A stretch of DNA of 38,860 nucleotides. Origin: Solirubrobacteraceae bacterium. Its GTDB lineage: Bacteria; Actinomycetota; Thermoleophilia; Solirubrobacterales; Solirubrobacteraceae. Every line of letters begins with the position of its first letter. Within the stretch, counting starts at the first letter, position 1. This document shows, in pieces, positions 24,048 to 27,924 of this stretch. Location of the stretch: the NCBI GenBank assembly GCA_030690545.1, contig JAUYGN010000014.1, positions 1 to 38,860 of the forward strand. The letters run 5' to 3'. The notes below the pieces were generated by a model. The model was not told the origin of the DNA, searched no databases, and was given only the letters and a program-made list of their open reading frames with translations. A program made the translations under genes and the position numbers.

Positions 24048-25139
24048 TCAGCGCCGTACGCCGCCGGCGATCCGCTCCAGCCGCTCGAGCACGATCTGCG
24101 CCGTCCGGTCCCACGAGAACCCGGCCGCGCGCGGCGGGCCGGCGGCCGCCATGCGCGCGCGCCGCGCCGGGTCGCGCAGCAGCAGCTCGAGCTCGCGGGC
24201 GATCGAGTCGGTCTCGGTCGGATCGCAGTAGGCGACCGCTTCGCCGCCGACCTCCGGCAGGCTCGAGCGGTTCGACGTGAGCACCGGCGCCCCGGCGGCC
24301 AGCGCCTCGAGCACCGGCAGGCCGAAGCCCTCGCCCAGCGAGGGATAGGCGAACAGCGCGCAGCGCCGGTACAGCAGCGCGAGCTGCGCATCGGGCACGA
24401 ACCCGGTGCGGATCGCGTGGTCGTCGAGTGAGTCGAGCGCCGCAAGCGTCTCACCGGCATCCCAGCCGAGCTTGCCGGTGACGACGAGCGGATGCGCGGC
24501 CCGCAGGTCCTCCGGCAGGCGCTCGTAGGCGGCCACGAGCCGCGGCAGGTTCTTGCGTGGCTCGAGCGTGCCGACGGCGAGCACGAAGCCCTCGTCGGGG
24601 ACGCCTGCGGGCAGCTGCGTGGCCGCATCGGCGAGCACGGGCGCCACGCCGAGCAGCGCCACGACCGTCTTGTCGCGCGCTCGCGGGAAATGCGTCACGA
24701 GGTCGTCGGCGGTGGCCTGCGAGATGCAGATCAGCGCGTCCGCCCGCCGCACGGCCGGGCCGAGCGTCAGCCGCGCGATGCGGCGCGCGCGGCGCTGCGG
24801 CAACAGCCGTCGATCGAACGGCACGAGGTCGTAGACGACGGGCGCCACCGGCACGCTCGCAAACCACGCCGGCAGGTAGGAGCCGGTCGCCAGGAAGACG
24901 TCGCACGCTCGGCTGGCGACGATCGAGGCGCGCAGGTGCCACAGCGGGTCGCGCGAGCCGTTGCAGTGCCAGCTGAAGCGCTCGTCCAGCGGCTCGGGCC
25001 ATGCGGTGCGGGCGTAGAGGCGGTAGCGATGGTCGTCGTCGCGCCGGGCGAGGGCGCGCAGCAGCTCGCGCACGACGCGTCCGACGCCCGCGCCCTCGTC
25101 GCTCGCCGGGCGCGCGTCGATGGCGATCGTCAGCGTCAC
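24048..25139 (-). CDS. Glycosyltransferase family 4
   Basis: The protein has 363 residues from GTG 25139. Residues 1-20 contain the GAGVGR loop (16-21) of the N-terminal Rossmann domain. VGTLEPRKNLPRLV (189-202) begins the C-terminal domain, and the EX7E motif is E270-E278 (EGFGLPVLE), followed by APVLTSNRSSLPEV (284-297). The fold and motifs are those of retaining GT-B enzymes such as mannosyltransferases. The start overlaps the stop of the GT2 gene upstream by 4 bp (GTGA), so the pair 26029-24048 is one transcription unit. Confidence 0.92.
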   Translation of the reverse strand: MTLTIAIDARPASDEGAGVGRVVRELLRALARRDDDHRYRLYARTAWPEPLDERFSWHCNGSRDPLWHLRASIVASRACDVFLATGSYLPAWFASVPVAPVVYDLVPFDRRLLPQRRARRIARLTLGPAVRRADALICISQATADDLVTHFPRARDKTVVALLGVAPVLADAATQLPAGVPDEGFVLAVGTLEPRKNLPRLVAAYERLPEDLRAAHPLVVTGKLGWDAGETLAALDSLDDHAIRTGFVPDAQLALLYRRCALFAYPSLGEGFGLPVLEALAAGAPVLTSNRSSLPEVGGEAVAYCDPTETDSIARELELLLRDPARRARMAAAGPPRAAGFSWDRTAQIVLERLERIAGGVRR

Positions 25140-26029
25140 GCCCGCCGGTGCCAGCGGTCCTGCGCCGTCTGCGGCGCGAGATGGAACAGCACGTGGCGCA
25201 GGCTATGGCGCGGCACGTTGGACGCGCATGCCGCCGCCAGCGCGAGCCTGCGGCGGCGGCCGAGCGGCGCGTAGACCGGCGAGCGCCAGCCGATCTCGCT
25301 GAGCACGTGGCCGGCGATGACGAGATGCGGCAGCTTCGCCTGCATCGCCGGCAGCCGGCTCTCGCGGACGTTGCGCGCGGTCGACTCGCTCGTGCCGCCG
25401 AGCTCGCGAAAGATCAGCGGCTCGTCGACGAGCACGATCTTGCCGAGGAAGGCGAGCTCGGCGACGCGCAGCCAGTCGAAGCCGAGGACGTTGCGCATCG
25501 GCGCCAGGCGCTGGACGGTCTCGCGCGGCGACAGGCCGTAGAGCCAGGTGTTGCCGTGATCGGAGGGGACGGTCGCGAAGTAGTCGCGCACGCGGATCTG
25601 GCCCGAGCCGCCGAGCAGCGCCTTCGTCCTGTCCCCGGGCGCGGGCTCCGCGTCGCTGAGGTACGTCACGCGGCCGAGCGCCGAGACCGCGCCGGGCTCG
25701 CTGCGCAGCGCGCCGAGCGCCGCTTCGACGCAGCGCGGCGCGAGCCAGTCGTCGTCGGCGAGCAGCATCACGTGGTCGCCTCGTGCCATCGCGATCGCGG
25801 CGTTGAGGTTGGCGACCATCCCGCGGTTGGCCCGCTGACGGACCGTGCGCAGGCGATCGTCGTCGGCGGCCAGCCTGTCGAGCAGCTCGACGGTGCCGTC
25901 GCTCGACGCGTTGTCGGAGACGACCACCTCGAGGTCGACGTGCGTCTGCCCCAGCGCCGAGCGGACGGCCCGTTCGAGTGTCGCCCGCCGGTTGAAGGTC
26001 GGGATCGCGATGCTGACGGCCGCAGGCAC
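25136..26029 (-). CDS. Glycosyltransferase family 2
   Basis: The protein has 297 residues from GTG 26029. VSIAIPTFNRRATLERAV (5-22) is the GT2 opening, SDNASSDGT (38-46) the nucleotide loop and ADDDWL (91-96) the metal motif. It resembles rhamnosyl/galactosyl-type cytoplasmic transferases of polysaccharide loci. A longer frame to 26101 is rejected: it would run through the divergent GT4 gene, and TAGTCT sits 8 nt before the GTG. Only 19 bp separate this start codon from that of the divergent gene at 26049. Confidence 0.9.
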   Translation of the reverse strand: MPAAVSIAIPTFNRRATLERAVRSALGQTHVDLEVVVSDNASSDGTVELLDRLAADDDRLRTVRQRANRGMVANLNAAIAMARGDHVMLLADDDWLAPRCVEAALGALRSEPGAVSALGRVTYLSDAEPAPGDRTKALLGGSGQIRVRDYFATVPSDHGNTWLYGLSPRETVQRLAPMRNVLGFDWLRVAELAFLGKIVLVDEPLIFRELGGTSESTARNVRESRLPAMQAKLPHLVIAGHVLSEIGWRSPVYAPLGRRRRLALAAACASNVPRHSLRHVLFHLAPQTAQDRWHRRA

Positions 26030-26036
26030 GGTGCCG

Positions 26037-26043
26037 CAGACTA
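26037..26043. promoter_or_regulatory. Shared divergent -10: CAGACT (+) / TAGTCT (-)
   Basis: The same seven bases read TAGTCT on the minus strand (26043-26038, 8 nt before GTG 26029) and CAGACT on the plus strand (26037-26042, 6 nt before ATG 26049). Two oppositely oriented leaderless genes therefore appear to use one overlapping -10 element. The plus-strand hexamer departs from TANNNT at its first base. Confidence 0.55.
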
Positions 26044-26048
26044 CGGGT

Positions 26049-27182
26049 ATGCACGTCGGCCTGAACCTCGTCTTCCTCGTCCCCGGTGAGCAGGGCGGCA
26101 TGGAGATCTACGCCCGCGAGCTGCTGCGCGCGCTGCCCGCCGAGCGTCCGGACCTGCGCCTGACGGCGTTCGTCAATCGCGAGGCGCGCGCGGCCGGCGG
26201 GGAGTGGGACGAGTTCACCGACGTCATCGAGGTCCCGGTCTTCGCGCGCAGCCGCGTGCAGTGGGTCCGCGGCGAGCAGCAGCTGCTGCCCGGCCTCGCG
26301 CGGCGCGCCGGCGTCGATCTGCTGCACAGCCTGGCCAGCACCGCGCCGACGCGCGGGCGCTTCCGGCGCGTCGTGACGATCCACGACCTCATGTATCGCG
26401 TCGTGCCCGAGGCGCACTTCGGCGTGCTCGGGCTGGGGATGCGCGTCCTGATCCCCGCCGCGGCACACCGATCGCACCGCGTGATCGTCGACTCGCAGTG
26501 CACGCGCGCCGACGTGCGGCGCTACCTGCACGTGCCCGAGCGCAAGCTCGACGTCGTGGCGCTCGGGCTCGGCGCGACGCCCGCGGGCGATCCCGAGCCG
26601 GCGGCCGTGCTGCGCGAGCGCCACGCGCTCGGCAGCCGGCGGGTCGCGCTCTCGGTGTCGGCCAAGCGCCCGCACAAGAACCTCATGCGCCTGCTCGAGG
26701 CGATCGCCGCGATCGCGCCCGAACGTCGGCCGGTGCTCGTGATCCCCGGCTATCCGACGCCTCACGAGCGCGAGCTGCGCGCACGCGCCGAGCAGCTCGG
26801 CGTGCGCGACGACCTGCGGATGCTCGACTGGGTCTCGGGTCCCGAGCTCGAGGGCCTCTACGCGCTCGCCGACGTGTTCGTCTTCCCCTCGCTGTACGAG
26901 GGCTTCGGGTTGCCGGTGCTCGAGGCGATGCGCCGCGGGGTGCCGGTCGCGTGCTCGGATCGTAGCTCGCTGCCGGAGGTCGCCGGCGACGCGGCGCTGC
27001 TGTTCGATCCCGAGGACGTCAGCGCGATCGCGCGGGCGATCGAGCGGGTGCTCGGCGACCCCGCGCAGGCACAGGTCCTGCGAGCCGCCGGCGTGGCGCG
27101 GGCGCAGCGCTTCACCTGGGCGGCGACCGCGCGCGCGACGGCCGCCAGCTACGACCGCGCGATGGTGCCTACGCGGCGTTGA
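26049..27182 (+). CDS. Glycosyltransferase family 4
   Basis: The protein has 377 residues. GEQGGMEIYAREL (13-25) is the N-terminal glycine-rich acceptor/donor loop of GT4 enzymes, TIHDLMY (110-116) follows, SVSAKRPHKNLMRLLEA (202-218) begins the C-terminal domain, and E284-E292 (EGFGLPVLE) is the EX7E motif. It is very similar in architecture to the 24048 product and shares its SDRSSLPEV tail motif, so the two may be old duplicates. The longer frame starting at 25845 would read through the divergent GT2 gene and is rejected. Its last 14 bp overlap the convergent methyltransferase gene. Confidence 0.92.
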   Translation: MHVGLNLVFLVPGEQGGMEIYARELLRALPAERPDLRLTAFVNREARAAGGEWDEFTDVIEVPVFARSRVQWVRGEQQLLPGLARRAGVDLLHSLASTAPTRGRFRRVVTIHDLMYRVVPEAHFGVLGLGMRVLIPAAAHRSHRVIVDSQCTRADVRRYLHVPERKLDVVALGLGATPAGDPEPAAVLRERHALGSRRVALSVSAKRPHKNLMRLLEAIAAIAPERRPVLVIPGYPTPHERELRARAEQLGVRDDLRMLDWVSGPELEGLYALADVFVFPSLYEGFGLPVLEAMRRGVPVACSDRSSLPEVAGDAALLFDPEDVSAIARAIERVLGDPAQAQVLRAAGVARAQRFTWAATARATAASYDRAMVPTRR

Positions 27183-27924
27183 CGTCGGCGGTCGCCGCGG
27201 CGGGAGCGGGGCCGCTGCGCTGGGTCGCCGCGACCGGCACGTAGCGCTGCACGAGAAAGGCGCCGTGGCGGCGGTCGATGCGCGTCATCGCGCGCGCCGC
27301 GCGCGCCGGCAGCGGGTAGTAGCCGGCGGTCCGGTCGAGGTCGAGCGCGAGGCCGTGATAGCCGGCCAGCGCGGCGAGCGCCCGGCCGGTGAAGACGCGC
27401 AGGTGCTGCTGGCCGAACTGCGGCTGCTCCCAGCCGTCGTAGGCGTTGGTCGGGTTGCCGACGATGACGTAGTCGCTGACGTGGCAGGGGGTGGGCTGCC
27501 AGCCCAGCGCGAGCGACACGACGTTGTGCCAGCTGGCGAGGTTGTTCGTCGAGATGATCGCGTGCCCGCCCGGCCGCAGCACGCGGCGGATCTCGCGCAG
27601 GAACGTGTCCGTGCGCGGCAGGTGCTCGATGACCTGGTTGGAGTGCACGAGGTCGAAGCTCGCGTCGTCGTAGGGCAGGCGCTCGGCGAGATCGGTCGCG
27701 ACGACCTCGATGCCGTGGCCGCGGGCGGCGGCCGCCCACTCCTCGACGAACTCGACGCCGTGCACCTCGGCCGCCCGCGCGCGGCGCGCGAGCTGCACGG
27801 TGAAGTGCCCGCTCGCGCACCCGAGGTCGAGCATCCGCCCGCCCTCGATCGGCTCGACCGCGGACAGGATCGCGCGCCGGTTCTCGTCCTCGGTGGCTCG
27901 AAAGAGCCGCTCCACGTAGCTCAT
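27169..27924 (-). CDS. Class I SAM methyltransferase
   Basis: The protein has 251 residues. MLDLGCASGHF (31-41) is SAM motif I, PYDDASFDLVHSNQVIEHL (about 84-102) is the motif II-III region typical of the Methyltransf_11 group, and RVLRPGGHAIIST (about 114-126) is motif V. The acceptor is unknown; sugar or polyprenyl-linked glycan methylation is plausible from context. The ATG overlaps the TGA of the GT4 gene upstream (ATGA), so it is the second gene of a two-gene unit. A longer frame in the same phase belongs to antisense and is rejected. Confidence 0.88.
   Translation of the reverse strand: MSYVERLFRATEDENRRAILSAVEPIEGGRMLDLGCASGHFTVQLARRARAAEVHGVEFVEEWAAAARGHGIEVVATDLAERLPYDDASFDLVHSNQVIEHLPRTDTFLREIRRVLRPGGHAIISTNNLASWHNVVSLALGWQPTPCHVSDYVIVGNPTNAYDGWEQPQFGQQHLRVFTGRALAALAGYHGLALDLDRTAGYYPLPARAARAMTRIDRRHGAFLVQRYVPVAATQRSGPAPAAATADVNAA

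What the first reader, a model, noticed from the sequence alone, without database searches (positions are those of the whole stretch)
26029..26049. Two divergent glycosyltransferase genes share one 7-bp -10 element in a 19-bp gap
GTG 26029 (minus) and ATG 26049 (plus) are only 19 bp apart. The near-symmetric bases 26037-26043 read TAGTCT toward one gene and CAGACT toward the other, with 8 and 6 nt to the start codons. Neither gene could have a leader or a -35 outside the other's coding sequence. Bidirectional bacterial promoters arising from symmetric -10 elements have been described; a pair giving two leaderless mRNAs from such a short gap is an extreme case, and polymerase could serve only one direction at a time.
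Basis: partly seen in the sequence, partly recalled or inferred. Interest (0 to 1): 0.5.

Follow-up and report, generated by a model that had tools for sequence, protein, structure and literature searches.

The report
Two genes around one tiny promoter
In an actinobacterium two sugar-transfer genes point away from each other across only 19 bases; the left gene has a clear, ordinary promoter there, and the right gene may borrow the same bases read backwards, which would be a compact case of an already described kind of two-way promoter.

Summary
The 19-bp gap 26030-26048 separates a GT2 gene (25136-26029, minus, GTG) from a GT4 gene (26049-27182, plus, ATG); TAGTCT lies 8 nt and CAGACT 6 nt from the start codons. 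The genome is Solirubrobacteraceae-like, 72% G+C. In a sample of it, 57 of 305 gene starts carry TAnnnT 6-10 nt upstream, almost never at other distances: a large leaderless class without a -35 box. The leftward TAGTCT is a typical member. The rightward CAGACT is not independent evidence: A-11 and T-7 of any TAnnnT are a T-7 and an A-11 on the other strand. It lacks T-12, and its exact class (C/G-AnnnT-A at 6-8 nt) shows no excess in seven genomes (10 seen, 9 expected). But no TAnnnT lies on the plus strand in some 550 bp upstream, and the spacing is right. In four relatives the GT4 gene directly faces a different glycosyltransferase, in three of them through AGGCTACTGT, a perfect -10 each way. 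In the window the GT2 gene sits between those two and the rightward -10 is spoiled. Sharing is plausible, not shown. Known kind: bidirectional promoters from -10 symmetry, here with leaderless genes.

The parts
25136..26029 (-). GT2 glycosyltransferase gene, GTG start, first gene of the leftward operon
   Evidence: ORF and codon score; Pfam PF00535 E 5e-30
24048..25139 (-). GT4b glycosyltransferase gene, second in the leftward operon; its start overlaps the GT2 stop by 4 bp; in four relatives it is the direct divergent neighbour of GT4a
26030..26048 (.). 19-bp intergenic gap holding the promoter(s)
26038..26043 (-). leftward -10 element TAGTCT, 8 nt before GTG; leaderless promoter (well supported)
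26037..26042 (+). possible rightward -10 element CAGACT, 6 nt before ATG; mirror image of the leftward element, C at -12, A at -6 (weak)
26038..26047 (.). AGACTACGGG, candidate worn form of the two-way core AGGCTACTGT found at the GT4b/GT4a junction of three relatives; the rightward T-7 is missing here
   Evidence: homology of the core suggestive only
26049..27182 (+). GT4a glycosyltransferase gene, ATG start, under purifying selection
   Evidence: Pfam PF00534 E 1.6e-31; dN 0.10, dS 0.39 against G003

Best explanation
The gap is a minimal leaderless promoter. Leftward (strongly supported by sequence statistics): RNA polymerase uses TAGTCT (26043-26038), no -35 box, and starts at or within 2 nt of the GTG at 26029, giving a leaderless GT2-GT4b mRNA. 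Rightward (inferred): the same base pairs, A26038 as -11A and T26042 as -7T, are recognised weakly in the other orientation and start RNA at the A of ATG 26049, giving a weaker leaderless GT4a mRNA. History (gene orders shown, order of events inferred): GT4b and GT4a faced each other across a two-way leaderless promoter of the form AnnnTAnnnT; GT2 came to lie between GT4b and that promoter, the leftward half stayed intact, and the rightward half lost its T-7 and most bases between it and ATG.
For: TAnnnT at 6-10 nt before 57 of 305 starts in G000, 31 of 88 divergent starts; at 6-8 nt 300 seen against 13.8 expected in 2434 starts of 7 genomes. No -35 signal in those 300. No plus-strand TAnnnT between about 25501 and 26049. 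CAnnnT 6 nt before starts: 42 seen, about 18.7 expected, so T-12 is dispensable for some promoters. Geometry equals the 18-bp class of PMC12825309 and PMC10268837. GT4b is directly divergent from GT4a in 4 of 29 orthologous loci, with AGGCTACTGT in 3 of the 4.
Against: C/G-AnnnT-A at 6-8 nt: 10 seen, 9.0 expected in all starts; 8 against 6.4 in divergent starts: no sign that such mirrored elements work in general. 28 of 88 divergent starts of G000 have neither TAnnnT, another xAnnnT, nor a Shine-Dalgarno-like word, so a gene without a visible promoter is common. The three closest GT4a relatives (G003, G006, G001) have no TAnnnT 6-12 nt before the start and no GT4b neighbour there. The core resemblance is 11 of 13 bases to G009, reached by 4 of 414 unrelated sites; 9 of 13 to G036 and G028, reached by 48 of 414.
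Confidence: 0.5

Rival explanations
1. One-way promoter only: TAGTCT drives GT2-GT4b, and GT4a is transcribed from a promoter of another type (other sigma factor, or without TAnnnT) inside the GT2 gene, or hardly at all.
For: The mirrored class has no excess; 28 of 88 divergent starts in G000 show no recognisable signal.
Against: No TAnnnT on the plus strand in some 550 bp upstream and no sigma-70-like site; no Shine-Dalgarno word near the ATG by eye; GT4a is under purifying selection.
Confidence: 0.37
2. The rightward promoter is the worn TACGGG(T) at 26042-26048, the rest of the older TACTGT of relatives.
For: Its TAC aligns with TACTGT of G009, G036 and G028.
Against: No T-7 in register and only 1 nt to ATG, while TAnnnT almost never lies under 6 nt from a start; RNA would start inside the gene.
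Confidence: 0.05
3. A start codon is wrong, so the gap is not really 19 bp (for example GT4a starting at in-frame GTG 26031, or GT2 at ATG 26101).
For: Both alternatives are open.
Against: Codon score, N-terminal homology and Pfam limits favour 26029 and 26049; the other starts would not fit the clear TAGTCT spacing.
Confidence: 0.05

Closest known systems
Bidirectional promoters from -10 symmetry (Warman et al. 2021, not read, cited in PMC12825309 and PMC10268837)
   Same: -11A and -7T of the two directions are the same base pairs; canonical start sites 18 bp apart on opposite strands; three relatives show AnnnTAnnnT, which by arithmetic fits the 23-bp distance named there.
   Different: The papers read treat E. 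coli and Salmonella; here both RNAs would be leaderless and the gap is little more than the -10; rightward activity is unproven.
Leaderless TANNNT promoters of Actinobacteria (PMC3898074, PMC3160421)
   Same: TAnnnT about 6-10 nt before the start codon, no -35 motif.
   Different: Nothing for the leftward gene. The rightward gene lacks T-12.
Divergent leaderless pair prpD/Rv1129c and 'closely juxtaposed divergent promoters' of M. tuberculosis (PMC3898074, figure legend seen)
   Same: Divergent genes that both start leaderless; closely juxtaposed divergent promoters are called common there.
   Different: No shared -10 is stated in the passages seen.

Membership tests
Leaderless TANNNT promoter (leftward gene) | TAnnnT 6-10 nt before the start codon | tested here: met
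   TAGTCT, 8 nt
Leaderless TANNNT promoter (leftward gene) | the class exists in this genome | tested here: met
   57 of 305 starts
Leaderless TANNNT promoter (leftward gene) | RNA 5' end at the start codon | not testable with these tools
   no RNA data
Leaderless TANNNT promoter (rightward gene) | TAnnnT 6-10 nt before the start codon | tested here: not met
   CAGACT only
Bidirectional promoter, 18-bp class | -11A and -7T reciprocally paired | tested here: met
   A26038 and T26042; automatic for any TAnnnT
Bidirectional promoter, 18-bp class | divergent start sites about 18 bp apart with RNA in both directions | not testable with these tools
   canonical positions 26031 and 26049 are 18 apart; no RNA data
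Bidirectional promoter, 18-bp class | mirrored elements enriched before gene starts in this lineage (supporting, not defining) | tested here: not met
   C/G-AnnnT-A at 6-8 nt: 10 seen, 9.0 expected
Bidirectional promoter, 18-bp class | T at -18 relative to the start sites (usual, not strict) | tested here: inconclusive
   plus start 26049: base 26031 is G; minus start 26031 would have T, minus start 26029 would have C

The most novel reading that the evidence does not exclude
A two-way leaderless promoter changed register during evolution: from the layout AnnnTAnnnT, with a perfect -10 for each of GT4b and GT4a, to the 18-bp layout in which both genes use one 7-bp element, when GT2 took over the left side and a small deletion brought the right ATG to 6 nt from the mirrored -10. 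In this bacterial family short divergent gaps would be governed by these two registers.
Probability: 0.2. Interest if true: 0.5.

Novelty: new member of a known kind. Interest (0 to 1): 0.3.

Why it matters
If both directions work, the site is close to the smallest promoter that can start two protein-coding mRNAs: by arithmetic the 18-bp layout with two leaderless starts 6 nt from the -10 needs a gap of at least 17 bp. It would let one test whether T-12 and A-6 set promoter direction in -10-only promoters, and whether leaderless two-way promoters make it easy to swap neighbours in a glycosyltransferase cluster. If only the left direction works, it is an ordinary leaderless promoter.

Tried and rejected
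Symmetry as independent evidence: rejected, since TAnnnT on one strand always yields nAnnnT on the other. A peak of 19-22 bp gaps: among 421 divergent pairs the gaps 16, 17, 17, 19, 19, 20, 22 form no clear peak, and given the gap the mirrored spacing is not significant (P about 0.18). -35 elements: no sigma-70-like site in 25700-26400. RNA families: no Rfam match in the window. The pattern search for GGCTACTGT before the GT4a start found only the three genomes already known, 3 of 146. A fifth divergent GT4b/GT4a junction (L193) has AGCCTAGCCT with the right start at 9 nt, but its left start is not in leaderless range. G025 has no TAnnnT in its junction. Literature: 'TANNNTA' gave one hit, on transcription factor binding motifs of Pseudomonas aeruginosa by its title; the listings showed no paper whose title or abstract start is about one -10 serving two leaderless mRNAs; Warman 2021 is not held.

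Full report
The site. The window is contig C117 of a 3.53-Mb, 149-contig genome, 98.6% complete, 72% G+C in the sample taken. The best-matching named loci carry titles such as Solirubrobacteraceae, Solirubrobacterales, Conexibacter and Patulibacter, so the host is most likely a Thermoleophilia actinobacterium (lineage). The minus gene 25136-26029 is a GT2 glycosyltransferase and the plus gene 26049-27182 a GT4 glycosyltransferase, here GT4a.

Leaderless promoters in this genome. I called genes by codon usage only, blind to upstream sequence. In 305 starts of G000, TAnnnT lies 6, 7, 8, 9, 10 nt before the start in 9, 16, 14, 8, 10 cases and in 0-2 cases at each other distance from 0 to 25 nt. 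In seven genomes (2434 starts, 2.75 Mb) the sum at 6-8 nt is 300 against 13.8 expected from distances 13-30. Around these 300 elements nothing stands out near -35. So -10-only leaderless promoters are a main class here, and TAGTCT 8 nt before GTG 26029 is a typical one.

The rightward direction. TAGTCT on the minus strand is AGACTA on the plus strand, which holds A and T exactly as -11A and -7T of a plus-strand element. The only free facts are base 26037 (C, not T) and the distance to ATG (6 nt, the near edge of the normal range). CAnnnT 6 nt before starts is seen 42 times against about 18.7 expected, so T-12 can be missing. But with A following the T-7, as here, C/G-AnnnT shows 10 against 9.0 in all starts and 8 against 6.4 in divergent starts. 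Perfect promoters also avoid that A: 4 of 300 are TAnnnTA. This speaks against strong rightward activity. In favour: no TAnnnT on the plus strand from about 25501 to 26049, no sigma-70-like site in 25700-26400, and GT4a is under purifying selection (dN 0.10, dS 0.39 against G003), so it is presumably expressed.

Other short gaps. Of 421 divergent pairs in the seven-genome sample, 13 have gaps of 16-29 bp. Four with gaps 19, 19, 20 and 22 have the window's layout: one perfect TAnnnT, mirrored by an element without T-12 (G000 C117 and C111, G014, G030; sequences, read by eye). Given these gaps the layout is not surprising (4 of 5 seen, 2.6 expected, P about 0.18). All four pairs with a gap of exactly 25 bp (G014, G024, G030, G036) have a perfect TAnnnT on both sides within leaderless range; read by eye, the two elements share a central TA in the form AnnnTAnnnT. 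Start codons of these other pairs were not checked by homology.

The neighbourhood in relatives. Matches to GT4a, paralogues included, were found in 61 of 61 genomes searched; the 29 best loci other than the window's own were examined. In 8 of 29 a TAnnnT lies 6-12 nt before the expected GT4a start. In 4 of 29 (G009, G025, G028, G036) GT4a is directly divergent from the orthologue of window gene 24048-25139, here GT4b. In three of the four the gap (26, 28, 29 bp) holds AGGCTACTGT, a perfect -10 for each gene: TAGCCT 8-9 nt before GT4b and TACTGT 8-10 nt before GT4a. In the window GT2 stands between GT4b and the gap, its stop overlapping the GT4b start by 4 bp. In G025 a GT2 homologue (42%) lies further down the same strand as GT4b. 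The window core AGACTACGGG fits AGGCTACTGT with the rightward T-7 missing and the ATG brought close. Over 13 bases around the leftward -10 the match to G009 is 11, reached by 4 of 414 unrelated leaderless sites; to G036 and G028 it is 9, reached by 48 of 414. This is suggestive only. The three closest GT4a relatives (G003, G006, G001) have other neighbours and no TAnnnT 6-12 nt before the start, so the cluster is often rearranged, and the GT2/GT4a junction was seen in no other of the loci examined.

Literature. PMC12825309 (first part and passages read) and PMC10268837 (passages) describe bidirectional promoters from -10 symmetry, with start sites most often 18 bp apart, also 10 and 23, and -7T and -11A reciprocally paired at 18 bp. 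Here canonical start sites are 26031 and 26049, 18 apart. PMC3898074 (passages) reports TANNNT without a -35 motif, many leaderless mRNAs and closely juxtaposed divergent promoters as common in M. tuberculosis. PMC3160421 (passages) predicts about 20% leaderless genes in Actinobacteria.

Verdict. The left promoter is real with high probability (my estimate about 0.93). Rightward use of the same bases is about even. The finding is a new example of a known kind, with a plausible but unproven evolutionary twist.

Noticed in passing
L067 (G009), L017 (G036), L022 (G028), junction GT4b/GT4a: AGGCTACTGT between divergent genes with gaps of 26-29 bp gives a perfect TAnnnT in leaderless range for both genes; a better candidate for a two-way leaderless promoter than the window itself.
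   Followed up: partly
G014, G024, G030, G036 sampled stretches, divergent gaps of 25 bp: All four divergent pairs with a gap of exactly 25 bp carry perfect TAnnnT on both sides, overlapping in the form AnnnTAnnnT; no pair has a gap of 23, 24 or 26 bp.
   Followed up: partly
300 leaderless promoters of seven genomes of one family: A directly after TAnnnT, which would make the -10 perfect in both directions, is rare: 4 of 300, against about 6% at unrelated distances and 15% A overall. It may reflect selection for direction or a plain base preference at -6.
   Followed up: partly
G000 C111:21348-21371 (L062:1348-1371): A second divergent pair in the same genome with a 22-bp gap and the same mirrored layout (TAGATT 10 nt one way, CAATCT 7 nt the other).
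   Followed up: no
window 27169-27182: GT4a and the convergent gene called at 27169-27924 overlap by 14 bp at their 3' ends.
   Followed up: no
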